NCBI GenBank assembly: GCA_963924555.1
Contig: OZ004586.1
Span: 2,108,001-2,172,000, forward strand
DNA: 64,000 bases
From: Crambe crambe
Lineage: Eukaryota > Porifera > Demospongiae > Poecilosclerida > Crambeidae
Reading direction: 5' to 3'
Both the position numbers and the translations under genes were made by a program. The notes under the pieces are model-generated. The model did no database searches and was not told the DNA's origin. It was given only the letters and a program-made list of their open reading frames with translations. This document shows, piece by piece, positions 1-21,866 of the stretch (the first letter of the stretch is position 1; every line of letters starts with the position of its first letter).

Positions 1-52
1 ATAGATTCAGTATAAAATGAAATCCCTCAGTTGCATGAATATGCCACCTTAC

Positions 53-972
53 CATGTTTGAAAGGGCTACCCTGTCCTTAGGGACAATGAGGACCACATC
101 GAAGGAAGCCTTATGTGCAGGTTCGTCCCAGCAAGGGAGGGCCCTTCGAGCATCTGCAGCTTCAAACTGAGTCACAGCAGCATAGCGCTCCTCCTTGGGG
201 TTGTTTGGGGCTGTGTATTTGGACCGGTAGAACCCGCGCATCTGGTCATTGTGAGTCCCAGTGTACTCGATGTTCAGTGTAGTTTCTCCCACAGCCAAAT
301 CATTCGGGACATCCAAAGTCAATGTCTCTGCATCCTTGTCCAAGGTCCATTTGGCATCTACAGTAAGATGAAAACATGAAGGATCACCATATGAAACAAA
401 GAGAGTGAAGCCGCAGAGCTAGAAATAAGACATTCAATCTGATTGGTCATTATAAAGATTTGGTCGGACATTCAGTATCCTATAATACTTAAAACTCTGA
501 AATTTGCCAAGAAATGGCTGGCCGGAAAGTGATCCATCACACACAACAGTTTTTCTAGCTCTGCTTCTTATCAGAAACATAGCAGGCTACACACAGTACA
601 ATGTTACATCTCTAATGCACCACAGGGTGACTGCACAGTAAGTGGGCAGTTGTTTTTCACTTCTTCTGATCAATTATCAGAATCACATACCCTGTCCTCC
701 TATACTTGCTGATGCAATTTCAATCTCGGCAGCATTCAGTTTTACTTGTTTGGTCGACTTAATCACCTATACACATAAATAAATACACACACATACAAGC
801 AGTACCAAGCTAGAGAAACACTACATATAGCTAAAGTGTTGGCTACCTCCGCAGTGATCTCCAGTTTTCCTTTGAAAATGAATGTGGATAGATTTGGCTG
901 GAGCTCCACTTTGTAGTTACGAGGAACTACATCGGTGGGAAGACGCTGAAAGGGCTTCTTCTCTTCTGCCAT
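53..972 (-). CDS. Second copy of NPEPPS-type aminopeptidase exons 1-3 (partial gene)
   Basis: The three exons at 972-847, 766-691 and 357-53 have the same lengths (126, 76, 305 nt) and phases as exons 1-3 of the complete gene at 14788-21866. Introns are also alignable, and homology continues to base 1, so the rest of the copy probably lies outside the window. Exon 1 encodes the identical MAEEKK start. The differences I could compare are mostly synonymous, with two conservative Val changes (to Ala and Ile) in exon 2, which suggests a protein-coding copy under constraint. The similarity to the complete copy stops at the ATG: upstream sequence is unrelated and belongs to the death-domain gene. 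The metal-binding exons are not visible here, so activity cannot be judged. Confidence 0.88.
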
Positions 973-3900
973 ATTCCTTACCTTGGACTCATCAGAGATG
1001 TCAGTCCCAAGTCCAGAAGTTAATATGCTTCCATCGCATGTTAAACTAGTGGCCACACTTATTCCAGTCACATCTCTGATCATACCAAACGCTGAGTCAG
1101 CATCATCATCACCGCTATTCACTTGAAGGGCAGTAGTCATTGGTTGCAGAGTAGGGGAGGAAGGATCTGGACAGGGAGAAAGATATTAAACTTGACCATA
1201 CTTGTGTCTGAACTGTCACTGTTTTCACCTTCACTTTCAGCATCAGCTCTAGCTAGATGCACAAAATAGTTTCACTGTTACCATAGCAATGGCAAATATC
1301 ACAGGCACATAATTATACTGATCATGATTCTCATGCTCTAGCTATCAGTAGCTATACCTGATTCACTATTTTTAGCTGCCTCTTCATCATCTTCATGTTC
1401 TGTTATTTTTCCTGCTAGAGATACGAGATTCAATGATTTTTCTCCATAGGTGATGTTGAGGACTCCCATGTTTCTCAGAGCTTGCTGCTCTTCTCTGGTT
1501 AGCTTCTGGATCATCTCTTCTGCACTGGGCAAGGCTCTGAATGTCAGTTGGATGCAGCCGAGATCTGTTTTCAGCAATCTCAAGTGATGTTTACCTATTG
1601 CTAAGTTGAGATCAGAGCAAAGCTTTTTCAATTCATTCACTGTCATTGTTTTGAAGTTGCACTCCTCTATTTTGAATACGAGGGTCTTTTCATTTTCCTC
1701 CTTGTCACCAAACATGTTGCTAGGACACTCACAGACTCTGCGTCTTGCATACTTATTGAACTTAGTTATATATGCCTTCATTTCCAAGTTGAGTTTATGT
1801 TCTTCTTCTTCAAAAAAGCAACCAATGAGTAACTCAATCAAAGTATAGTCAATGAATGACCAATGTTTCCCTTTCTTATCAAATACTTTATCAATTGAGT
1901 CACATTCCTTGAATACTTCACAGAATCTTGGATCATCTTGGGAAAAAACATTAATTACTTTTTCTGCAGTTATTCCTGACTCTTTCAATGCCTCTTTTAG
2001 ATGCAACTCAAGAGCTATAAAGCTATGCTTTATTTTGGTGGTATCTCTCATCAAAGAATAAATGTAGTTTGTTCGCACATGTTCGGACATGTTCTTAGAG
2101 AGAAATGGAAAGAGAGTAACATCTGCAGAAATACTAGTTTTTCTAAACATGTAGCCAGGATTATACTGTTAGCCTCCCTATATGAACCAGCTGAAAGAGC
2201 TATACTCACTGCACATGCTATAGCTACATCATTGTTTTCTTCATATGATTGTTCCATGACAATGATGTTAGTTGAGTTTAATAAAACAATGGCATGCAGG
2301 GTTTCATACAGGAATTTGGATAAAGGGGGACTATGCATGTGGGCATGCTTGTGTGAGGAGTTTAAGACACATTCAGTAATTGGTTAAGGGGGGAGGGGGG
2401 GAAGTTTCAATCAGAGGGGGGATCTCCCCCCTTTCCCCTTCCGCTGAAACCCTGGTATGATTATAGCTTGGTGAAACATAATTAAAAGTGAACAAGTATG
2501 TATTTTTTCCAAGGCACCGAGGTGATGGAGGTACGTTTCACACACAATGATGCATAATGATGCGTATCAAGCATGTGCATTAGCTCTAGATACGAGGTCT
2601 ACTACAGTACTAAGGACAAACAGACAGACTCGGGCTCAAGCTTGCAGTCACTATGCAGTAACTCCATACCATGAAGAGAGTGCCATCTTTGCCAACAAAT
2701 TATGACATGCAGAGAACTGACTAAAAGATAGCAGTAAACAAAAACAACAGAAATTTCGAACTAGTAACTATTTGAAGTGCCAAAGAGAGAGCCATGGTGA
2801 AGGAGAATGACTTTAAGGCTTCCAAACAATGAGAATCCAGTACACATACTTCAATCAAGCTATGCGTGAGAATAACCATTCAAAACGGCAGTTCGAAAGC
2901 ATTGAACAGCAAGAATTAGCCTAGCTAGCTGTGTAAATACTAACCTTACTACAATAAGCCATGTTGCTCAGTGTGCATTATTTAGAAAGTTTAATTATAA
3001 TCAAGGTTGCACTGAAGTGCCGAGGCATTCCTAGTCTTTAAAAGTGGGAAATATATACTTCATAATTATTATGGTTCTTCCAGGCCCACAATCGATAATG
3101 AATAGCTATTCCAAAATACCTGATTGTTGAGAAGTCTGAATATATGGCCGAATATAGTTTGCTTCAATATCCTTGGCAAGAGCAGGGAGCTGTACTGGAC
3201 GTGCATTTAGTGCAGAGGAAAGATTCTTCCATGTTGGTTCTGAACCTTGACCTGCCAGCCAATCTATCAGCATCTGACTGAAGCACTCTGCTGGATTGTT
3301 ACTGCACTTTTTTCTTATTGCTTCAAGAGAGGTAGCATTCAGTTCCAACTCCACCCCCAAATCAAACCACTTTACTTGAGCATCCCAAATACAATTCCGC
3401 ACTTTTTTCAGGTCATCCATCACCAACGGAGCTAAATGACATGATACAATGATTAATGGCTAGCTGAGTTCACAAGAGCAGTCCAGTATATATATAGTAA
3501 CTGACTAAACTTAACTTCCAGCAGTACCTACTTCACTGAGTATTATTTATTTAGCTATCATCATCATTATTGCTAAAGATAATTGCAGCGAGTGAGCGAA
3601 GCGAGTGGGCTGACTCTCAGGTCATGACTCATTGAAATTTTAAATATATATATATCTAGGTCTACACTCCAAAATGCCCCAGGCATACTTAGTATGTGTC
3701 TCGTGCAATAGTAGCGGCGCATGCTCCAGTTGCAATTGCTTGATTGATTTCTACATCCTTTGTATATAGCATGGTGGATAGTAGGGCTAGGCTTATCTAA
3801 GTGGATTGTAGGCACTAGACATATCCAAGTGCTTTGTGGTAAGTACTTAGCTTTCTATGCATGCAGCTGCCTGCCACTTAGCTACATAACACAACAGCAA

Positions 3901-4300
3901 AGCACAAATGAACTATCAGCTCAACATTTCTACAGCCTTTTGGGCAGCAGGCACAAGAGGCTTATCTAAGCGGTTTGTAGGCACTAGGCTTATCTAAGTG
4001 CTTTGAGGTAAGCATGTATGCAGCTGCCTGCCACCACTTACATGACTCTAGCAATATCAAGCACTGAAGCCTATCAGCTACTTTAATTGCTCACTGTCAA
4101 ATGCTGCACATTGCTACAGATACTCAACAGCAAATGAAAATCGTTGAAGAATACTTGCTTGCTCGCTCGCTGTCAACTGAATGTTGAACATTGCCCTAGT
4201 AGTGGGATTGGCAATTGGGGGTGTTACCGTGTATAAGGCTGTACAATAAGTGAGATAATATTGTCATTACAGAGTAATGGCAAAACTTACTCTCTGACAT
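53..4300 (-). CDS. Death-domain protein fused in frame to aminopeptidase N-terminus (partial, runs off left edge)
   Basis: The predicted minus-strand exons are 4300-4291, 3431-3120, 2122-1358, 1166-847, 766-691 and 357-53. Every junction has GT-AG ends and compatible phase. Residues about 8-97 read as a death domain: helices with the KWFDLG, ECFSQML and TWKNL blocks and a closing IEANYIRP. Residues about 108-362 are a helical module followed by a beta-rich part (KTLVFKIEE, LGCIQLTFRAL) shared with the plus-strand neighbour at 4504-6822. A 64-codon linker then leads without a stop into [11 protein letters not shown], the normal start of the NPEPPS-type aminopeptidase. Death domains mediate homotypic assembly in apoptosis and immune signalling; the middle module is unknown to me. 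The start ATG at 4300 follows from a 10-nt first exon ending in a good GTAAGT donor with matching phase. The splice model is inference; the coding content is clear. Confidence 0.68.
1358..2122 (-). other. Shared middle module exon of the death-domain gene
   Basis: This single 765-nt exon encodes the conserved module that pairs the death domain gene with its neighbour at 4966-5714. Both copies have an N-terminal helical half (KESGITAEKVINVF here, DQDINPDKFCFFLL there), a central segment with a low-complexity acidic loop, and a C-terminal half rich in strands ending in LLKTDLGCIQLTFRAL here and SVRDGCVVVTFLIP there. The acceptor is TTTCTGCAG and the donor GTATAG, both phase 1. I do not recognise the module as a named family. 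Its repeated association with death-fold domains suggests an effector or sensor part of the same receptor family. Confidence 0.7.
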
Positions 4301-4503
4301 CTTGATGTCACCACACAGGGAGAGGTTGAGGGTGGCCACCAGATGAGGAATTCGAAGGTATTTCGAGTGGGGGAAGATAAAGTGTCTGGATGAGGTGTGG
4401 CCGACTTGACGAGGTACGAGCCCCGCCCCCTAAAAAAGCAGTCTGGCCCAGGCCCGCGAGACTAGCTCTCAAATTCGGGCCTATGATACACACTCTATGT
4501 TAG

Positions 4504-6822
4504 CGGCAGTGCCGAGTATTCAACGCTCCTCGAACTCACATCAACACTTGTTAAGGAAATATCTGGAGATATTGTCTCAGTTACTAATGAATTAGTAGCG
4601 AAGGGTTTGGTCCCACCGTCAAGGATGACTTCAGAAAAGGATTCACAGACAAAGGCCACTGAATTAGTACACGAAGTCATCAATAAAGTTGAATTATATC
4701 CAGAGAAGTTTGATGTGTTTGTTGGCGTCCTTGAAGGTTCTGCTCATTTTGAAGATATAGTTGAATTGATGTGCAAGAAACGAGATCAACTGAAAAGTGC
4801 ACAACAGCTGGCAGGTACATAATTTATTACCACAAGTAGTCAGTAGCTAGATAGCTTGATCCTTAGTTATACTGGACAGGTGTCACAGCACTCCTCACCC
4901 TTTCCCTCCTCTACGTACTGGCTTCATTCATTGATGCCATAACACCCTCCTACAATTATTTACAGGTGATGATTTATCTCTGCCTTTGTCACCTGAAATT
5001 CATGAAGATCTCAAACAGCAACTTGAGCATAATCTAAGGGATATCAAGAAACAGTTTGCACATTTCGTCTCTGCTATTCATGAATCTATTTTTGACCAGG
5101 ACATAAATCCAGATAAATTTTGTTTTTTTCTTCTGAGTCTGAATGCATTTGATCATGATAAATACCCAAAGCTCCTTTCTGATGTTGAGAATGAACTAAA
5201 AAAAGAGACCACAGTTAGTGGCATGTTCAATTTCTTGATACAATACAAATTAACTTCTTTTTTGAACTACGATATTATCCTGAGTATTATTGATAAGTAT
5301 GGCACTGAAGGTGATAGAGAGAGATCTGAAGAATATGAATTAAAATTGGAGGAATATATCAAGAAGCATAAAATATCAGAATTTGCTGAAATTATTGAAC
5401 CAGATTTACTGCAAAGGAGTTTTGATGCAAGGGTGAAAATGGTTCTCAAAATTGATGTCGAAAAGTGTGCAGAGTTAGCCAATCTCCGTGACCTAAAACT
5501 TGCACCAGCTGATGCTTTGAAACTAAACTCATCTGCCCTATTTCTCTATAGTGTTAGAGATGGCTGTGTGGTTGTGACATTTCTCATTCCAGTATCAACT
5601 GCAGAAGTTGTCTTCTGCGAAAGCAAAGAGTTCACTGTGAAACGATTAGAAAAATTTAGTACATTTTCTCTTCAGTGGTTGGAATGTGGTGATTTCCAGT
5701 GGTTCAATTCAAAGGTTAGTTATTTGTACCATTCTAACTTCAAGCATGTTTAGTTGACAGCAGTGCAACGAAAAATGAACTCACAACATATGAACTATTG
5801 ATTGGTTAATGGTTGTAGCCATGCACCACAATACTGCTTTCACCTTGGGCTTAAAGTGAAGTTTGGGCTCAAGCTCCACATGATTGAAGAGGTAGCTATG
5901 CCTGCACCTCTCAGCATCGGTCATGTAGATTTTGGTCTTACAAAATTTTAAGTGAATTCCAAGAGTATTATTCATGGGAAAAGTTTAAGTGACTTGTGCC
6001 TTGAGTATTATAATTACCACTGTGTGTCACTGAGCCATACAATAATAATATTATTATATGTAGGTCGTTGCTAATAATATGAGAGGATCAGATGAACTGA
6101 ATGACGAAGACAAAGAGGAAATAATCATTAAAGTTCAGCCAAACTTGTCACAAAGTTCAAGAGTTCAGCCAAATGAAGAGATAGCGCTAAAAATTATACC
6201 TCGGAAGGCTAAAGTTTGTATTTTGTTATCTGCATTTTATTTCACTTTACTACTTTTTCTCTCTACCTCAACAATGCGTTCAAGTCATGTGGGAATAATA
6301 ATGCGTTCGCATTCAAGTAATCTGAAAATAGACATCTCAACAATGTGTGTGGAAATAGTGAAACAACAGAAACAATCTATACAACTGAACAAACATGTAA
6401 ACAATATATTAAACAAGCAACAGCCACGCCTGTCGAGTATTGATTATAAATTCCTACAGCATATGAATTTAACAGAAACTCTTAGAATATTGAAATACAA
6501 AATTGAAAAACTCCTAGGTGACTTAAGAGATAGGCTATCTGATGAGAAAATGGAGGCAAACAATGGGAAAATTTGTGGATTAAGAGTTGAAATATCAAAG
6601 CTCAGAAAAAGACTGGAAGTCAATCTCAAGTCAAAAATTAGTTGGATAGGAGATGGACGATTCCAGAAAATCAGATGTGGCTGGTGGGGTTGGCGTAGAT
6701 GTAGCTTGCGGACAACCAATAAAGAACGTTTACATATTCACAAAGAAATTGATGAAAGTTTACAGATCATTATCCAGATAGCAAAAGATACCGAGTACAG
6801 ATGGAATAGTCTATGTACATAA
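4504..6822 (+). CDS. CARD-like domain, shared module and membrane segment protein (first exon not found)
   Basis: Exons 4504-4814, 4966-5714 and 6064-6822 join at GT-AG sites with phases 1 and 0. The first exon reads as a CARD-like helical bundle (LLELTSTLVKEISGDIV, then KATELVHEVINKVELYPEKF). The second is the module shared with the minus-strand death-domain gene. The third carries a hydrophobic stretch (VCILLSAFYFTLLLFLS) that could cross a membrane, then a heptad-like coiled-coil region and a basic, Trp-rich tail. The layout suggests a death-fold receptor or anchored adaptor. No in-frame ATG is visible in the first listed exon: an in-frame stop lies at 4484 and an acceptor-like AG at 4502-4503, so a short 5' exon is probably missing from this model. 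An AATAAA at 7061 may end the transcript. Function is inference from domains. Confidence 0.66.
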
Positions 6823-7060
6823 AATGTGTGATGTGAATGAAAATCATGTTCAATTTTGTGTACAATGCACACCTAGATCACCTACTAGGCTAGTGTGTGC
6901 ATTGGGACATTTTAGTGTATATAATATTATTATAATGTACAGTGTAGCTAGCTATACTATAATATTTTTTCCTGATTTCACTTATTACAAAGAAAATTTT
7001 ACCTATGATATTGTGCTCTTACATGCAGATTTGTGCCTTTCCAAAAAAATAACGAATAAC

Positions 7061-7066
7061 AATAAA
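7061..7066 (+). terminator. Putative polyadenylation signal of the CARD-like gene
   Basis: AATAAA lies about 240 nt after the stop codon at 6820-6822, before the start of the tandem duplicate. It is a candidate only, because no cleavage site can be seen directly. Confidence 0.35.
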
Positions 7067-7202
7067 CCATTCAACCCAATATTAATCGAACTCTCCTCAA
7101 AGAGATAGTAATGAACCCAGCATACAGCTCGTAGTTAGCTATAGCTATGTACTGGTCTCTTTTTTCCTTAATGAGGACCACCCCTTCTACAATTATTTAC
7201 AG

Positions 7203-9290
7203 GTGATGATTTATCTCTGCCTTTGTCACCTGAAATTCATGAAGATCTCAAACAGCAACTTGAGCATAATCTAAGGGATATCAAGAAACAGTTTGCACAT
7301 TAATTTTCGTCTCTGCTATTCATGAATCTATTATTGACCAGGACATAAATCCAGATAAATTTTGTTTTTTTCTTCTGAGTCTGAATGCATTTGATCATGA
7401 TAAATACCCAAAGCTCCTTTCTGATGTTGAGAATGAACTAAAAAAAGAGACCACAGTTAGTGGCATGTTCAAATTCTTGATACAGTACAAATTAACTTCT
7501 TTTTTGAACTACGATATTATCCTGAGTATCATTGATAAGTATGGCACTGAAGACAATAGAGAGAGATCTGAAGAATATGAAGAAAAATTGGAGGAATATA
7601 TCAAGAAGCATAAAATATCAGAATTTGCTGAAATTATTGAACCAGATTTACTGCAAAGAAGTTTTGATGCAAGGGTGAAAATGGTTCTCAAAATTGATGT
7701 CGAAAAGTGTACAGAGTTAGCCAATCTCCGTGACCTAAAACTTGCGCTAGCTGATGCTTTGAAACTAAACTCATCTGCCCTATTTCTCTATAATATTAGA
7801 GATGGCTGTGTGGTTGTGACATTTCTCATCCCAGTATCAACTGCAGACTCTGTCTTCTATGAAAATAAAGAATTCACTATAAAATAATTAGAACAATATA
7901 GTACATTTTCTCTTCAGTGGTTGGAATGTGGTGATTTCCAGTGGTTCAATTCAAAGGTTAGTTATTTGTAGTATTTTTATGAAATACTAGTGCCATTCTA
8001 ACTTCAAGCATGTTTAGTTGACAGCAGTGCAACAAAAAACTGAACTCACGACATATAAACTATTGGTTGGTAGCCATGCACTAACCTTACACAATACTTG
8101 GGCTTAAAGTGAAGTTTGGGCTCAAGCTCCACATAATTGAAGAGGTACATGTAGCTATGCCTGCACCTCTCAAGAAACCCAGCATCGATCATGTAGATTT
8201 TGGTCTTACAAATTTTAAATTCCAAGAGTATTATTTTAAGTCCGACATCTATCTCATGGGAAGAGTTTAAGTGACTTGTGCCTTGAGTATTATAATTACC
8301 ACTGTGTGTCACCGAGCCATACAATAATATTTTTATATGTAGTTCGTTGCTAATAATATGAGAGGATCAGATGAACTGAATGACGAAGACAAAGAAGAAA
8401 TAATCATTAAAGTTCAGCCAAACTTGTCACAACGTTCAAGAGTTCAGCCAGTGACCATTTTCCCAAACCATACTCGAACTACATCTTGGAAACAAAAGTT
8501 TGCATTTTTTTAATCTGCACTTTTTCTCTCCATCTCAACAATGCGTTCAAGTCGTGTGGAAATAACAATGCGTTCAAGTCATGTGGAAATAACAATGCGT
8601 TCAAGTCATGTGGAAATAACAATGCGTTCAAGTCATGTGGAAATAATAATGTGTTCAAGTCATGTGGAAATAGCCATCTCAACAATGCCTTCAAGTCATG
8701 TGGAAATAGACATCTCAACAATGCGTTCAAGTCATGTGGAAATAACAATGCGTTCAAGTCATGTGGAAATAATGCGTTCAAGTCATGTGGAAATAGCCAT
8801 CTCAACAATGCCTTCAAGTCATGTGGAAATGGTGAAGCAACTGAACAAACATGTAAACAATAATATTATATTAAACAAGCAACAGCCACGCCTGTCGAGT
8901 ATTGATTATAAATTCCTACAGCATATGAATTTAACAGAAACTCTGAAATTCAAAATATATCTAATTGAAAAACTCCTAAATGACTTGAAAGATAGGAGGC
9001 TATCTGTGGAGAAAATGGAGGTGATTAAGAGTTGAAATATCAAAGCTCAGAAAAAGACTGGAAGTCAATCAAAGTAAGATCAAGTCAAAAATTAGTTGGA
9101 TAAGAGATGGACAATTCCAGAAAATCAGATGTGGCTGGCGGGGTTGGCGTAGATGTGGCTTGCGGACAACCAATAAAGAACGTTTACATATTCACAAAGA
9201 AATTGATGAAAGTTTACAGATCATTATCCAGATAGCAAAAGATACTGAGAGATGGAGTGTTTACTGTGATATTATGTTTACTATAAATAA
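7203..9290 (+). pseudogene. Decayed tandem copy of exons 2-3 of the CARD-like gene
   Basis: From 7181 on, the sequence repeats intron 1's end, exon 2, intron 2 and exon 3 of the gene at 4504-6822. The CARD exon is absent. A 5-nt insertion creates an in-frame TAA at 7301-7303, a second TAA lies at 7885-7887 where the parent has CGA, and exon 3 has a further stop near 8509 next to the lost membrane segment. The middle of exon 3 is swollen by a 27/36-bp minisatellite at 8539-8830. Long open stretches survive (7465-7884), so the copy is young or the breaks are recent. It could still be transcribed, or included in transcripts of the upstream gene. Confidence 0.85.
8539..8830 (+). repeat. In-frame minisatellite, 27 and 36 bp units
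   Basis: About ten units share the core ATGCGTTCAAGTCATGTGG. Most units are 27 bp, some are 36 bp with an extra CCATCTCAA block, and one is 24 bp, so all are multiples of three. The parent gene has only about two degenerate units at 6273-6360. In the parental frame the array would encode a repeated MRSSHVEIT peptide; in another frame it encodes NNAFKSCGN. Confidence 0.92.
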
Positions 9291-14787: not shown

Positions 14788-17700
14788 CTACTGTGCAGAC
14801 AACCACTCCTTGGCAGCCTGTCTGTCCCGCTCCAACCACTTGACATTCAGACGTATGGCCTCACAGTTTTGCTTGACAATCCTGTCTGCCATTGGCCAGC
14901 GATTCTCTGCGAAAAACTTCTCAATTTCTGTAGCACGTTCTTCAGAAACAAATCCTGAAGTGGATACCTAGAGAGAGAGGAAGAACGGAAGGGTGAGAGA
15001 GAGAGAGAGAGGTCTTGGTCCCTTACGTACATCAATGATTCTAGCCAACAGGAACTGTCCTTGGAATCGCTCCTTTAGTTGCGTCCACTTCTCCATCAGA
15101 AACTTCCACACCATGTCTCGGGAAAGTGGACAACAGTTATTGGCAGAGAAAAGCAGGATGTAGCAGTTATTGGGACGTACTTTGTCCTATAGGTCAAACA
15201 TACGTCCTAGTAAGATATACTCAATTTTCAAACACACTACCATCTCCTTAAAAATGACAGATTCCCCCCACCCAGCTCTAAATACATATACCATTGTCAC
15301 ATGACAAAGAGTATGTCCTGATTAATATCATGTCCTATAATTTATGAATATTATACTGTACTACAAAGTATGTCCTGATTATAATTAGTGAATATCCGAG
15401 TTATATGTCCTGTCCTATACTTGCTGCAACTTACTGAAAATATGAGGTCCAGACATTTCTTGGTAAGGAGCTCAGTCTTGCCACAGCCCAAGGAGCGATA
15501 GATTCTTGATTTCTCCTCGTCAGAATCACTAGCGTCGTTAAGCTGCGTATGTATGTATGTATGTATGTATGTATGTATGTATGTATGTATGTGTATGTAT
15601 GTATGTATGTATGTATGTATGTATGTATGTATGTATGTATGAAATGAAACCAGTCAATTAGGAATAAGCTTCTTTTTAGTATTCACCTAACCCCTTGATC
15701 ATTCGCTATAACTTTCTCAATTCTTAACCAAATTTCTAGTTTAATGCATCAACAGAGAGCTGATTATCCACTCTCTCTGCTGGTATCTGAAATTTGAAAT
15801 TTGGTGAAAGTTATAGTGAATGATCAAGGGGCAAGGTGAATGCAAATAGACTTTAATTATTATGTTGACTTCAGCAACGAGGAATTCCTGGTTGATTATA
15901 ATCAAGAAAGACTGTAATTACAATGTCTTCTCAGATTTCCACTTCATCATAAGTCAATTACCTTTCATGGGCCTCTGACATTAGCTGTACAACCACTATT
16001 GGGAAGAGAGGCAGTCTCTGAATAGGGCGGTCTCTTAATAAGGGCATCTCTTGATAAGGGCAGTCTCTTAATAAGGGTAGTTTCTTAATAAGGGTGTCTC
16101 TTAATAAGGGAAGTTTCTTAATAAGGGTGTCTGGAAGTTTCTTAATAAGGGTGTCTCTTAATAAGGGCAGCCTCTTAATAAGGGTGTCTCTTAATAAGGG
16201 CGGTCTCTCTTCACTGTATTATTGCCCCTGGGTACAATGCACCTGTTATGAGAACATCTCCTTCTATTAATACAAATATTGTATATTCTAATTATAGCAC
16301 ACTAACTTCAACAAGTTGGTTGAATGTGGCCTCATCACCATTGGCAACACAGATGGAGAAGACAGCAGTCTTGAGGTCAGGATGTATGGAGTCACCACCA
16401 GAGAAGTGACTATTGAACTTCTTCTTTGCTTCGTTGATGGTTTCAGGGTGTTCATACTTGCCCAGCTGGTTGATCACGAGACTTCGCAGCATCACATCCA
16501 GAGGACCTCAAGACAAAACAAAGGTCAAAAGGTCAAACTAGACTTGTAGAAAGATGATTGGCCATAAGCAAAAAAAAGTAGGTCAGAACTCCATCCCATA
16601 CGAAGCATTAACAACAATGACAACAACAACGACGACAACAATAACAACAATGACAACTACAACAAAACTGGTTGGTCAGTTCCATAGAACGGTCAGTAAT
16701 CAAGTTATTTGAGTGAAACCTTTCAATCAGGACTGAAAAGTAGTTTCAATGCATAATATATTGATAAAATAAATTAAATTCCATACCAGGGATATGCACT
16801 TCTAGAAAACAATGATCTAAAAAGAAGGTTCAAGCTTACCATCTGTGTCCTTGGCATCCCATCCAAGTCTAGTGATGGAAGGCTGGAACATCTTCAGGGC
16901 ATATTTCCTGAAGCTCTCGTAGAAGTCCGTGTAGGAGAATAGCCGTGCAAAAGTGGAGAGATTGGAAACTAAGCTCTCCCACACTGTGTATGACTCTTCC
17001 TTGGAAAATGCTGCCAGCAAGCGCAGCACGTCAACCGTACTACCCACACCAGCACGAGCCTGTCGTAAACAAGGAAACATAATATGCTTTGAAGTTTATT
17101 ATATTGATGACCCTTTACCTTATTACTATTAAGAACGTTTATTACACTGACGACCCTTTACCTTGTTACCATTAAGCTAACCCTTTGAATAATAACGGAC
17201 AAACTTTGGGACCCAACCTTTTGTCATTTGTAGAGAGGCTGTCCTCTTTTGGACGCTGTTTTTTATAGGGTGTATATACAAAAGTACTTTTAGATTATCC
17301 TTTGTTGTCTCCCTTATCAAAGGTTCAAGTGGTAGGTCTATCATAGGACTGAGGAAAGCTATGTTGCAATAAAGCACTAACCAGAGCAAAGGCATCATTC
17401 TGCAACCCCAGCCTATCCTGTGCGGAGAGGGTGCCGTCCTTGAGAGCTGGAAGAAGAGGAGAGAAGAGATCGGAGGAGTACGATACACGATAGAACCCTT
17501 GACGACCGGGATTCACCTAGAGATTGCAGGGAAAAAAATCAGATTGATTAACAACCATTCCTATAGCCTTGTTTAACCGTTTAACAACACCCCAGTTTGC
17601 ATACCAGTATCCAGTCATCCGGCCCCACCCCTTCCACGGTGACAGTGTCAGTTGGCTTATCTAGGATGAACCTGAGGGCCTCTGGATTCTTCTTGGTTGC

Positions 17701-20700
17701 TATTGTCACAGGAACGAGCCACAACATGGAACCAAAATCTGGAATGGAAAAAAGCTCACCACATTCAAAAATATCATGTATGTACTTCCGTACCTCCCAT
17801 GCAGCCATCAGCACAAAACTTCTTCTGAGAAATTGTTAACACTCTGTTCTCCCCCTCCTACAGTAATAGATCATGTGAGTATCATGTGACTTCATCTTGC
17901 ATCACTAAATTTAGCACATACTTGTTTCCCTTCCACTGATAGCACTGGGTAGCCCATCTGCTTGGTCCAAGTGGACATCACCTTGGCAACAGGCTTATTG
18001 CTAGTCTTCTCCAGGGCATCCCAAAGATCCTCTGGAGAGGGAAATTCCAATTAAAGCACATCATTCAAGTGTATGCTTAGCGGTCATGGAACAGACTCAT
18101 AAAAACTACCATCAAAATCAGCATAACACATAGCAATCTACTCATCTTTGTTTAGTCCAATAACAAGATATTACATGCAAACACAATTTTACATTCGATC
18201 AGTGGGTTACCTGTGCTGGCATTCTTGTATGCAAATTTCTTGAGATAGTTTCCAAGACCCGTACGAAAGTTCTACAGTCAAGCATTTGCCATTAAAATTT
18301 AACACTTGCTGTGCATGTGACACAAGTACAATGTCCCCAGAGCGCGCTAGTGCGGCGCAGCACCACGCTACTATAAAGCTTAGACTAAAGTAGAAAGACT
18401 TCAAATCAAGCTCTAAAGCTAGATATAGTCTTGCGAGGGTCTGGCTCAGCTAGCTAGTGCACTGAGAGAATCCAGTACCAGCACTAAGGTAGGCTTTTAA
18501 GCTTATGCGCTTGGAATAATGAACTAACTAAGCTATTTTCAATATCTTACTCGACTCCTAGCTATAATAGTTCGAAACTCAGCCCATCTTGCACTGACGA
18601 TCTCGTGTGCGATTGATTACGCACATGTGCAGTGACACAATTTACCACTCTACATTTTTTTTTCTGGGGACAACCCTGGACAACCCTGCATATGTACGTA
18701 CCTCAGTGCCGATCCAGTCGTGAAGCATTCGTATCACACACGACCCCTTGGCATAAGAAATGGTGTCAAAAATCTCCTCCACTTCAGCAGGTGATCCAAC
18801 AGGGACCTAAAGCAGCAGTGTGGTGATAGAACAAGATATAAAGTGTTGCATAAAAGCTAGATGTAAGCAGAACTAGATGAAAGCAGGGTTCTGTCCAAAA
18901 GAAGTAGAAAAGTTGTACTCCCAATGATGACTATGCAGGACACTCCGAACAAGGACAAGGACAATTTATATACACTCTGTACAAAATAACCTCCAAAAGA
19001 GGACAACCTTCTCTACAAAGGATAAAAGGCTGGATCCCACGTATGTCCATTATTCAAAGTTCTACAGTAGAACATCTAAGAAAGAATAGTTTCTGGGGGG
19101 GCTGATATAATTATATGTATGCAAATCTAAACCGCTGTCTTTGCCACATAGAACTTTGCAATGATGTTGAAATAAGAGACTCAATTTCATTGGGAATGCA
19201 TAGCAGGCAGATGTGCATTGCTCGAATCTGATAGTACTAGTTTTATGGATTTGAACCCACTGACCTCTATGGGATGGGAATTTGAGAGGGCATCAAGTGA
19301 CTGGGCACTGGCATACTCCCGACTCAGGAAATTGGTCCAAATCTCGAACTCGGGATGGGTGTGGTCGACGCAGAGATATTCGATCCATGTAGCAAATCCT
19401 TCGTTCAGCCAAAGGTGGGTCCACCACTCCATGGTCACCTGGATTGAAGTCACACGATCGTCACATGGCTATCATATGACCAAATCAACCAACCAAGTTT
19501 CCAAACCACTGGTGAGCTAGCTCGTGTCCAACGACCAAAGCAACCAGCTGCTTAGTGATGGCAGTGGAGTTGGCTGGGTCAACCAACAGAAGTCGTTCCC
19601 TGCAAATCAGAAATATCATGAGTCAGTTAGTTAGGTAAAGGTCATTCTTGGTCTAGCTACTGGGAGGGGGGGGGGGGGGGGCAAGACCAGGGATAAAGTT
19701 GGAGGTCAAAGTGAGAGGGGATTGGGTAGACTAAGGTTCAAGGGGGGAGGGCAGGGAGGAAAGAAGGAAAGATGAAGAGAAGGAGAGGGAACTGACCTGT
19801 AAGTGACCAGTCCCCAATTCTCCATGGCTCCAGCTGCAAAGTCAGGAATGGCTATCAGGTCCATCTTTGGTAAAGGGTAGGCCACGTCGAAATAGTCCCG
19901 ATAGAAGGGCAGTGTTTTTATTGCCACCTGCATGCAATGAGGAGGTTATCATGATAAACCACAGTGGGGTAGACCCCAACATGATAAAACTAGGTGTGTA
20001 CCCTGTATGGTTAGTCTAGTTAAACCACTTTCACATCACAAACAGAACTACAAGTCTACATGTAATGGGAAAATCAATGTACCAATGCAAAAACTGCAAG
20101 CCATATAGCCCATACAAGAACACCTTTTGATTTGTTTTTCTTTCTTTACTTGGTATGTAATTCTCTTTCTTTCTTAGTCTTTCTTTCCCACTGAAAAATT
20201 GTCTATGTTGACACTCCCGACCTACCTACCCTTTCCCCTTGACTTACATCCAGAGCAAACTTTCCCTGCTCTGCTTTGCCCACTGGCGTGTAGACCCTCA
20301 CCAACACACCATTTGAGTCAGTGCCTTCCACGTAGTCAAACTCCCCGACGACAAAGGCAAGGAGGTACGAAGACATCACGGGGGAACGAGCAAAGGTCAA
20401 CTTCTTCAGATTATCTGGAAGTTCTTCTTCTTTAGTTACATTCTATTACGTATAAGTTAAAAGGTCACACAGTGGAACCTCCGATAGAAGTGGACAAACC
20501 TCTTCACAAAGGACAATCTAAAGATACAACAAAATAACCTCCAAAAGAGGACAACCTCTCTACAAAAGGACGAGAGACTGGGTCCCATTATTCAGAGCTT
20601 CTACTGTGAATAGCTCAAGGAGTTCCTGAATTATAAGCCACTTCAAGTATCAGCTGAAAGCAATGCAGGGTTCCCACTGGGCACAATAATCTCCCCTTAG

Positions 20701-21866
20701 CAGCCGCTATCCACACATCTGGCCCTCCAGAGTGCAAAAGGTTATCATTTATCCCACTATCAAAGTTCACACAAGGTTATCATACATTTTGAATCTATTC
20801 AGGGGCATTGTGGGGCGAACCTGATCTTCTTTCAGGTTACTACAGAGATATTTTGAGCAGCAACAAATGAAAGCATGCTCAAGGTCATCACAAAAATATA
20901 GATTCAGTACAAAATGAAATCCCTTGGTCGAATCAGGAAGCATGAATATGCCACCTTACCATGTTTGAAAGGGCCACCCTGTCCTTAGGGACAATGAGAA
21001 CCACATCGAAGGAAGCCTTGTGTGCAGGTTCGTCCCAGCAAGGGAGAGCCCTTCGAGCATCTGCAGCTTCAAACTGAGTCACAGCGGCATAGCGCTCCTC
21101 CTTGGGGTTGTTTGGGGCTGTGTATTTGGACCGGTAGAACCCGCGCATCTGGTCATTGTGGGTCCCGGTGTACTCGATGTTCAGTGTGGTTTCTCCCACA
21201 GCCAAATCATTCGGGACATCCAAAGTCAATGTCTCTGCATCTTTGTCCAAGGTCCATTTGGCATCTAAAGTAAGACAAAAACATGAAGGATCACCACATG
21301 AAACAAAGAGAGTGAAGCCAGAGTAGCTAGAAATAAGACGTTCAATCTGATTGGTCATTATGGTCAGTATCCTGTAATACTTAAAACTCTGAAAGTTGCC
21401 AGCCATTTCCAAGAAATGGCCAGAAAGTGATCCATCACACACAGCAGTTATTTCTAGCTCCAAGCTATGCACCACAGGGTGACTGCACAGTAAGTGGGCA
21501 GTTGTTTTTCACTTCTGATCAACATGATTCAAATATTAGACTCTGCTACTTCTGCAAGAACTATTAATATCAGAATTACATACCCTGTCCTCCTACACTT
21601 GCTGATACAATTTCAATCTCAGCAGCATTCAGTTTCACTTGTTTGGTCGACTTAATCACCTATACACATAAATACATACACACACACACACATACAAGCA
21701 GTAATGATGAAGCTAGAGAAACAGTATAGTGTTTAGCTACCTCCGCAGTGATCTCCAGTTTTCCTTTGAAGATGAATGTGGATAGATTTGGCTGGAGCTC
21801 CACTTTGTAGTTACGAGGAACTACATCGGTGGGAAGACGCTGAAAGGGTTTCTTCTCTTCTGCCAT
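14788..21866 (-). CDS. NPEPPS: Puromycin-sensitive aminopeptidase (M1 family), complete
   Basis: There are eighteen exons: 21866-21741, 21659-21584, 21264-20960, 20442-20248, 19927-19797, 19599-19494, 19438-19265, 18806-18702, 18271-18211, 18031-17922, 17857-17794, 17738-17605, 17516-17382, 17059-16840, 16506-16307, 15542-15435, 15186-15031 and 14967-14788. They sum to 2586 nt, or 861 residues, in line with vertebrate NPEPPS without its N-terminal extension. This cytosolic zinc exopeptidase removes N-terminal residues from peptides, including proteasome products. Visible motifs are GAMEN (267-271), the zinc site HELAH (303-307) with Glu326 in NEGFA after the expected 18 residues, and the transition-state Tyr389 in ISYAKG. 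The C-terminal half matches the helical ERAP1-like domain. All key residues are intact. Introns carry several MITE copies, and the acceptor of exon 16 directly abuts a tetranucleotide repeat. Confidence 0.96.
15546..15640. repeat. (GTAT)n microsatellite at a splice acceptor
   Basis: About 23 units, with one GTGTATG interruption, start two bases after the AG acceptor of aminopeptidase exon 16 on the minus strand. In the transcript the intron therefore ends in (AUAC)n followed by GCAG, with no ordinary polypyrimidine tract. Confidence 0.95.
16010..16215. repeat. Tandem TTAATAAGGG repeat array
   Basis: About ten variants of TCTCTTAATAAGGGCAG lie in the intron between aminopeptidase exons 15 and 16. 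The ends (CAACCACTATTGGG and CTTCACTGTATT) suggest expansion inside a MITE of the local CAGTGG family. Confidence 0.8.
17180..17335 (+). mobile_element. MITE fragment in aminopeptidase intron
   Basis: It shares GTAGAGAGGCTGTCCTCTTT and AAGTACTTTTAGATTATCC with elements at 18930-19075, 20468-20606, 23039-23150 and 53043-53155. It is a degraded, non-coding member of the family. Confidence 0.7.
18930..19075 (-). mobile_element. MITE copy in aminopeptidase intron, reverse orientation
   Basis: The reverse complement carries TCTACTGTAGAACTTTGAAT, then GTAGAGAAGGTTGTCCTCTT and the AGAGTGTATATAAATTGTCC block shared with other copies. It is non-coding. Confidence 0.72.
20468..20606. mobile_element. 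MITE with both termini in aminopeptidase intron 3
   Basis: The left end is ACACAGTGGAACCTCCGATA. The right end, reverse-complemented, begins TTCACAGTAGAAGCTCTGAA. The interior AAATAACCTCCAAAAGAGG is shared with the copy at 18930. It is about 140 bp and non-autonomous. Confidence 0.78.

What the first reader, a model, noticed from the sequence alone, without database searches (positions are those of the whole stretch)
53..4300. Death-domain gene spliced in frame into an aminopeptidase copy
Seen: six minus-strand exons join with compatible GT-AG phases, linking a death domain, a family-specific module and the exact start of an M1 aminopeptidase. The linker between the last death-gene acceptor (1167) and the aminopeptidase ATG (972) is open for 64 codons, and similarity to the intact aminopeptidase gene stops precisely at that ATG. 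Inference: a duplicated peptidase copy landed in, and replaced, the 3' end of a death-fold receptor gene. A death-domain-tethered peptidase is not something I know from any animal.
Basis: partly seen in the sequence, partly recalled or inferred. Interest (0 to 1): 0.8.

Follow-up and report, generated by a model that had tools for sequence, protein, structure and literature searches.

The report
Sponge death-domain gene joined to aminopeptidase
In a sponge genome, the front half of an immune-type death-domain gene sits directly before a complete copy of a peptide-trimming enzyme gene, in the right reading frame to be spliced into one protein; such mix-and-match proteins are known in sponges, but this enzyme partner appears to be new and no RNA has yet shown the fused message.

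Summary
The exons join in frame, and the peptidase copy is complete: 18 exons, 861 aa, HELAH-x18-E and GAMENWG present. The 64-codon linker is not a chance opening. It is a normal exon of the death-domain family, with at least 35 further copies in this genome, and its own donor (AAG|GTAAGG) survives 9 nt before the peptidase ATG. So two in-frame fusions are possible: read-through (1288 aa; Death, M1_N, Peptidase_M1 and ERAP1_C all above Pfam cut-offs) or splicing 982 to 766, phase 0 to 0 (1243 aa). The donor score favours the second, which loses 42 enzyme residues. The segment 974-4495 sits where two ends of a ~21-kb tandem repeat meet; a 100% identical fused junction lies 21 kb to the left.

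The class is known: Death/TRADD-N/variable C-terminus proteins, hugely expanded in Amphimedon (Kaur et al. 2021). Here the same cassette also precedes ankyrin repeats, an Ifi-6-16-like exon and an RRM/zinc-finger/PARP gene, by predicted phase-0 junctions. A full-length M1 aminopeptidase is the new part. Peptidase B differs from intact copy C by 16 synonymous and 4 nonsynonymous changes. No RNA evidence was available.

The parts
4291..4300 (-). Exon 1: start codon and first 10 nt (ATGTCAGAGA|GTAAGT), phase 1 out
   Evidence: Sequence; short match at the same place in paralogs L018 and L029
3120..3431 (-). Exon 2: Death domain, phase 1 to 1
   Evidence: PF00531 23.5 bits, cut-off 22.6; 9 of 9 family exons match PF00531; 49-75% identical to 8 paralogs
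1358..2122 (-). Exon 3: family module, possibly TRADD-N-like in its C-terminal half
   Evidence: 139 module matches in the genome, of 140 candidates scored; PF13820 sub-threshold in 5 of 11 members, not in this one; GC at a predicted beta2-beta3 turn (low-confidence model)
1202..1252 (-). Probable small in-frame exon (51 nt), optional
   Evidence: Counterpart exons in L018 and L037; keeps frame
982..1166 (-). Linker exon, a normal exon of the family, phase 0 donor AAG|GTAAGG
   Evidence: At least 35 further copies at 75-83% identity; donor conserved in 7 of 7 paralogs aligned; donor score 7.38, higher than the other 7 scored and than all 17 donors of peptidase B
973..981 (-). Nine bases (GTAAGGAAT): the start of the family intron joined to the base before the peptidase ATG; reads as V-R-N if not spliced
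   Evidence: Comparison with seven paralogs and with intact copy C
847..972 (-). Peptidase exon 1 from ATG 972, phase 0 out, weak donor GAG|GTAGCC (score -0.12, second weakest of 17)
691..766 (-). Peptidase exon 2, phase 0 in, phase 1 out
53..357 (-). Peptidase exon 3 (Peptidase_M1_N)
   Evidence: PF17900 E 1.6e-31. Fifteen further exons lie left of the window, G000:C9:2107532-2101752, to the stop codon
974..4495 (.). Death-gene segment lying between two ends of the tandem repeat units
   Evidence: Boundaries; 100% identical copy at window-relative -20148 to -16627
14788..21866 (-). Intact peptidase copy C with its own upstream region (comparison copy)
   Evidence: 18 exons, 861 aa

Best explanation
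This is a real gene fusion in the sponge genome. The 5' part of a Death-TRADD-N family gene (promoter side, Death exon, module exon, linker exon with its donor) lies directly upstream of a complete duplicate of the puromycin-sensitive aminopeptidase gene. Shown: DNA order, open frame, compatible phases, intact catalytic motifs, loss of the peptidase's own upstream region, two identical copies of the junction, and few protein changes between peptidase copies B and C. Inferred: transcription starts at the death-gene promoter. The linker donor either splices to peptidase exon 2 (favoured by site strength, but losing the first 42 residues of the enzyme) or is read through (whole enzyme kept). The product is a cytosolic aminopeptidase carried on a death-fold tether. 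It would be brought by homotypic assembly to an immune or cell-death signalling complex, where it could trim N-termini of nearby proteins or peptides, in the way other effectors are thought to be deployed on this N-terminal unit. The junction itself arose when a death-gene segment was captured at a tandem-duplication junction (inferred).
For: In-frame chains, with and without the optional exon. Linker is a conserved family exon and its donor is kept. Complete 18-exon peptidase, all 17 introns GT..AG, with HELAH-x18-E and GAMENWG. The joined 1288-aa protein has Death, Peptidase_M1_N (positions 1-186 of 186), Peptidase_M1 (1-218 of 218) and ERAP1_C (1-317 of 318), all above cut-off. B against C: 20 changes in 2586 nt, 16 synonymous; exons 1-3 alone 13 of 15 synonymous; P = 4e-5 for 4 or fewer of 20 nonsynonymous if B had been neutral under a simple model. 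No AATAAA or ATTAAA between the one at 2034 and the peptidase ATG. Copy C's upstream region has no match at copies A and B. The same cassette is predicted to use a phase-0 junction to other partners: ankyrin in L012-L017, an Ifi-6-16-like exon in L037, an RRM exon in L018. Published precedent for the class.
Against: No RNA data. The stronger donor favours the form lacking the first 42 residues of the enzyme, which may not fold. A weak donor is no bar, though: peptidase exon 6 scores lower still (-1.14). The few protein changes in peptidase B may date from before the junction formed. Copies A and B are 100% identical over 4.4 kb, so there is no post-fusion divergence to test, and a false duplication in the assembly is not excluded. 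In-frame joining alone is only about 1 in 9 by chance (my estimate). The Death exon has dN/dS of 1.66 and 0.84 against L018 and L029 on few changes, which is no sign of constraint there. The TRADD-N assignment is sub-threshold.
Confidence: 0.6

Rival explanations
1. A by-product without function: the junction is real and fused RNA may be made, but it is a passing accident of a tandem-duplicating locus, with the enzyme supplied by intact copy C.
For: Copies A and B have 0 CDS differences, so the fused arrangement now seen is young or homogenised; the locus is a tandem array; copy A carries a 3.26-kb insertion in intron 2; the favoured splice form drops 42 residues.
Against: Peptidase B has few protein changes relative to C, and its exons and splice dinucleotides are intact.
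Confidence: 0.27
2. Two separate genes: peptidase B is transcribed from a new promoter in the death-gene introns or linker, starting at ATG 972, and death-gene transcripts end early.
For: The ATG and whole peptidase frame are intact; AATAAA at 2034 and 3551 and ATTAAA at 2282, 2995 and 4087 lie on this strand.
Against: Only 9 nt separate linker donor and ATG; copy C's upstream region is missing; the 2034 hexamer lies inside the module exon.
Confidence: 0.1
3. Assembly artefact: a false join between a death-gene family member and a peptidase copy.
For: Highly repetitive family and near-identical tandem units.
Against: The assembly whose sizes match this genome is HiFi at 459-fold, QV 58.1; the junction occurs in two units that differ by a 3.26-kb insertion; no other near-identical copy of the death gene was seen that could have been mis-joined: the best other matches are 79% (Death) and 73-76% (module) in protein. 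Those two lists are capped, and the DNA search was swamped by an intron repeat.
Confidence: 0.03

Closest known systems
Sponge (Amphimedon) Death + NCOA6-clade TRADD-N + variable C-terminus proteins (Kaur et al., eLife 2021, PMC8195603; read: sections 8 and 10 and found passages)
   Same: N-terminal death-fold domain, then a module with weak TRADD-N similarity, then a variable C-terminal domain; a large lineage-specific family; ankyrin repeats a common partner
   Different: C-terminal partner here is a complete M1 aminopeptidase, not among the partners named in section 10; the word aminopeptidase does not occur in the main text; the source-data tables were not seen
Puromycin-sensitive aminopeptidase (NPEPPS, M1 family)
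   Same: Complete 861-aa M1 chain with catalytic motifs; closest PDB chains to exon 3 are named puromycin-sensitive aminopeptidase
   Different: Loses its own upstream region and gains an N-terminal Death-module-linker extension
Caspases and other peptidases with death-fold prodomains (recalled)
   Same: Death-fold domain on the N-terminal side of a peptidase, so proximity recruitment is conceivable
   Different: Unrelated peptidase: a zinc exopeptidase, not a cysteine endopeptidase activated by dimerisation (recalled)

Membership tests
Death-TRADD-N-variable-effector class (Kaur et al. 2021) | N-terminal domain of the Death-like superfamily | tested here: met
   PF00531 above cut-off; 9 of 9 family exons match at E <= 0.1
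Death-TRADD-N-variable-effector class (Kaur et al. 2021) | TRADD-N domain after the Death domain | tested here: inconclusive
   PF13820 in 5 of 11 members at E <= 0.1, best 0.0034; the 4 members shown with scores lie below the 22.5-bit cut-off; not found in the window member; whole-genome PF13820 search gave 0 matches at E <= 0.001; GC at residues 188-189 between predicted strands 181-184 and 190-195, in a model of mean pLDDT 41
Death-TRADD-N-variable-effector class (Kaur et al. 2021) | Constant N-terminal unit with different C-terminal domains among paralogs | tested here: met
   By predicted exon joins, of 11 loci fetched: ankyrin in 6 (L012-L017), Ifi-6-16-like in L037, RRM/CCCH/PARP in L018, and the peptidase in the window; unresolved in L029, none recognised in L036, module truncated in L042. 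L037 has in-frame breaks in its module and may be a decaying copy
Death-TRADD-N-variable-effector class (Kaur et al. 2021) | Lineage-specific expansion | tested here: met
   150 Death and 139 module matches at E <= 0.001 (capped lists, including distant relatives)
M1 aminopeptidase, puromycin-sensitive type | M1 N-terminal, catalytic and C-terminal (ERAP1_C-like) domains | tested here: met
   PF17900 174.7, PF01433 304.2 and PF11838 288 bits in the joined protein; exon matches at copies A, B and C
M1 aminopeptidase, puromycin-sensitive type | HExxH-x18-E zinc site and GxMEN motif | tested here: met
   HELAH...LNE and GAMENWG in copy B; motif names recalled
M1 aminopeptidase, puromycin-sensitive type | Catalytic activity of the fused product | not testable with these tools
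   Needs expression and assay
Death-domain caspases | Caspase fold | tested here: not met
   No caspase family among the Pfam matches of the 1288-aa joined protein at E <= 0.1

The most novel reading that the evidence does not exclude
The Death-TRADD-N-linker unit is an exon cassette with a phase-0 donor that repeatedly plugs into new downstream genes in this sponge. The window catches one capture with both DNA breakpoints still readable, and the captured gene is a housekeeping aminopeptidase turned into a death-complex-tethered exopeptidase effector.
Probability: 0.4. Interest if true: 0.7.

Novelty: new variant of a known kind. Interest (0 to 1): 0.52.

Why it matters
Sponges and other sessile marine animals carry hundreds of death-fold proteins with ever-changing C-termini, but how new partners are acquired is rarely visible. 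Here the donor exon, the retained splice site, the target's start codon and an intact sister copy of the peptidase can all be read in one locus, so DNA-level capture with in-frame splicing becomes directly testable by RT-PCR. If the protein is made, it adds an aminopeptidase to the list of effectors placed on death-fold scaffolds.

Tried and rejected
Rejected: chance open linker (it is a family exon); retrocopy (introns kept); death segment resident in the ancestral unit (the leftmost unit seen lacks it); a near-identical donor locus elsewhere (best other matches 79% and 73-76% in protein; 77-88% in DNA pieces of L018, L029, L036 and L037; the whole-segment DNA search scored 40 of 2399 candidates and was swamped by a repeat). 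A C-terminal partner for L036 was not recognised by eye in about 5 kb. A SACS (sacsin) fusion at C6:3.27 Mb is adjacency only: no linker match was found and no frame-compatible acceptor was resolved. Module structure: AlphaFold2 on the single sequence gave mean pLDDT 41, too poor for a fold search. PDB profile searches gave no significant hit for the module (best E 0.17); for the Death exon only two chains, E 0.1 and 0.14, named PIDD-CC and leucine-rich repeat and death domain-containing protein. A PF13820 genome scan found nothing, nor did its control genomes. Literature, search listings only: (puromycin-sensitive aminopeptidase + death domain + domain architecture) 0 papers; (three of death domain, aminopeptidase, gene fusion, exon shuffling) 9 papers and (three of NPEPPS, death domain, fusion protein, sponge) 52 papers, 10 listed, none whose title or abstract start shows such a fusion; on sponge death domains likewise. 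(passages of the Dysidea avara NLR paper) has no mention of TRADD, ankyrin or aminopeptidase.
Full report
WHAT WAS CLAIMED AND WHAT IS THERE. The exon chain is present as described. On the minus strand it runs 4300-4291, 3431-3120, 2122-1358, 1166-847, 766-691, 357-53, with GT-AG sites and phases 1, 1, 1, 0, 1 between consecutive exons and one open frame throughout. The Death domain passes Pfam's cut-off, and nine of nine family members tested match PF00531 at E up to 0.1. Left of the window the peptidase continues to its stop codon: 18 exons, 861 residues, 17 introns all GT..AG, HELAH-x18-E and GAMENWG intact. Exon 3 is closest to chains named puromycin-sensitive aminopeptidase among solved structures. 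The joined 1288-aa read-through protein carries Death, Peptidase_M1_N, Peptidase_M1 and ERAP1_C above their cut-offs, the three M1 domains at full profile length to within one position.

SOURCE. The chromosome lengths of the held genome agree with Table 2 of the Crambe crambe genome note for five contigs I compared (9.083, 8.844, 8.732, 7.625 and 7.061 Mb against 9.08, 8.84, 8.73, 7.63 and 7.06); a sixth is 9.168 against a listed 9.18 (PMC12166358, section 5 read). That assembly is HiFi at 459-fold with QV 58.1. The held copy is 143.14 Mb in 119 contigs against 143.20 Mb in 124 scaffolds, so the identification is strong but rests on sizes.

THE LINKER IS A REAL EXON. A genome search with window 1-1200 returned 40 scored matches of 193 candidates. 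Of the 40, 35 are copies of the linker exon at 75-83% identity: 33 on contig C10, one on C12, one on C8; the other five are the window itself, the neighbouring peptidase and death-gene copies, and a short repeat. In the seven paralogs aligned, the exon ends in AAG followed by GTAAGGAGCAAAT. In the window it reads AAG GTAAGGAA and then TATGGCAG, while intact copy C reads TTCTAG TATGGCAG. So 7-8 bases of the family's intron survive, with the donor intact, and the peptidase part begins one base before its ATG. With a simple weight matrix this donor scores 7.38, above the other seven scored and all 17 donors of peptidase B; the donor of peptidase exon 1 scores -0.12, second weakest of the 17, exon 6 being weaker at -1.14. 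The linker ends in phase 0 and peptidase exon 2 begins in phase 0. Splicing 982 to 766 therefore gives an in-frame 1243-aa product without the first 42 enzyme residues; read-through gives 1288 aa with the whole enzyme. A 51-nt exon at 1252-1202, seen in paralogs, keeps frame in both. No AATAAA or ATTAAA follows the one at 2034 before the ATG at 972.

HOW THE LOCUS IS BUILT. A ~21-kb unit is repeated in tandem. Peptidase copies: A (window-relative -20150 to -30595), B (972 to -6248) and C (21866 to 14788). The death segment 974-4495 is present with 100% identity next to A and next to B, and absent from the leftmost unit seen. Its right edge cuts a plus-strand gene after its first 4-5 codons, as judged from two native copies at -38853 and -43315. 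Its left edge cuts the peptidase one base before its ATG. No other part of a close death-gene relative was found in the 134 kb examined by DNA comparison with 960-4600; the rest of this gene's former 3' end is unknown. The simplest reading is a death-gene segment captured at a tandem-duplication junction; this order of events is inference. Copies A and B differ by a 3,261-bp insertion in intron 2 of A, with no CDS difference.

CONSTRAINT. B against C: 20 substitutions in 2586 nt, 16 synonymous and 4 nonsynonymous; in exons 1-3, 13 and 2. Under a simple model in which B is neutral and C has omega 0.1, 4 or fewer nonsynonymous of 20 has P = 4e-5. Exons 4-18 differ at only 5 sites and most of their introns are nearly identical too, which suggests conversion or a more recent common copy there. 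This constraint may predate the junction. For the death part, module dN/dS against four paralogs is 0.29-0.63; the Death exon against three gives 0.27, 0.84 and 1.66 on few changes, so it is not evidence of constraint.

WHAT KIND OF THING IT IS. Kaur et al. 2021 (PMC8195603; sections 8 and 10 and found passages read) describe 357 NCOA6-clade TRADD-N proteins in the sponge Amphimedon. Most architectural types have one to three Death-like domains, then TRADD-N, then a variable C-terminus: ankyrin repeats, SH3-LRR, kinase, MATH, SH2, PDZ, caspase, PNPase or HD. The window gene fits this plan. The module's TRADD-N assignment is weak: 5 of 11 members match PF13820 at E up to 0.1, best 0.0034, those shown with scores all below cut-off, and the window's own member does not match; a genome-wide PF13820 search found nothing. 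The GC pair at a predicted beta2-beta3 turn agrees with the motif that paper describes, but the model is poor.

PARTNERS IN THIS GENOME. Of eleven paralogous loci fetched, six (L012-L017) have a linker donor followed by an ankyrin exon with the acceptor CACAG|GAC; the phase-0 frame was read in L012, L015 and L017. L037 leads to an Ifi-6-16-like exon (E 1.5e-5, below Pfam's cut-off) without a start codon, CATAG|GTC, phase 0, inside a cluster of 13 Ifi-6-16 matches; but its module is broken by a stop into two overlapping pieces, so it may be a decaying gene. L018 leads to an RRM exon, TGTAG|GAC, phase 0, followed by CCCH and PARP frames; only the PARP match is above Pfam's cut-off. L029 has SACS exons downstream but the junction is unresolved. 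L036 showed no recognisable partner, and L042 has a truncated module. These eleven are a small part of the family and were picked as best or nearest matches. The joins are predictions from sequence; none has RNA support.

MECHANISM. Most likely the death promoter drives a fused message and the protein carries the aminopeptidase to a death-fold assembly, where it could trim nearby N-termini. Transcription, splice choice, folding and recruitment are all inferred. The chief doubt is that the stronger donor yields the form missing the first 42 residues of the enzyme, most of which lie in the M1 N-terminal domain.

VERDICT. Confirmed observation. A new variant of a known, fast-shuffling class, with a new enzymatic partner and unusually readable breakpoints.

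Noticed in passing
window-relative -23797 to -20537 (L011 about 5903-9163), intron 2 of peptidase copy A: A 3,261-bp insertion absent from copy B, with an 829-aa open frame that looks like a DNA-transposon transposase by eye; flanks share GCTA. Copies A and B are otherwise identical in coding sequence, so the insertion looks recent.
   Followed up: partly
window 4496-5753 and 7182-8575 (+), also -38853 and -43315: A tandem family of plus-strand genes; the copy at 4496 has lost its first 4-5 codons including the ATG at the junction with the death segment. Their ending (RDGCVVVTF) resembles the module's LGCIQLTF by eye, but a module profile did not match them.
   Followed up: partly
window about 4200-3579 (first intron of the death gene): A high-copy ~620-bp repeat; most of the 111 matches of a genome search with 960-4600 fall on it, many at 88-95% identity, often in tandem.
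   Followed up: no
G000:C10:140,000-1,200,000: At least 33 linker exons in about 1.06 Mb; the five C10 members read (of 33) lead to ankyrin repeats, so this looks like a very large tandem expansion of Death-module-ankyrin genes.
   Followed up: partly
G000:C6:3,264,000-3,284,000 (L029, L043): A Death-module pair directly upstream of a giant sacsin-type gene, with a PARP match about 6 kb beyond the last SACS match; sacsin-type genes at C6:2.91-2.96 Mb also lie near PARP matches.
   Followed up: partly
window 14788-21866 against 972 to -6248: Peptidase copies B and C differ at about 11% of synonymous sites in exons 1-3 but at only 5 sites in exons 4-18, suggesting conversion or a recombination boundary near intron 3 / exon 4.
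   Followed up: partly
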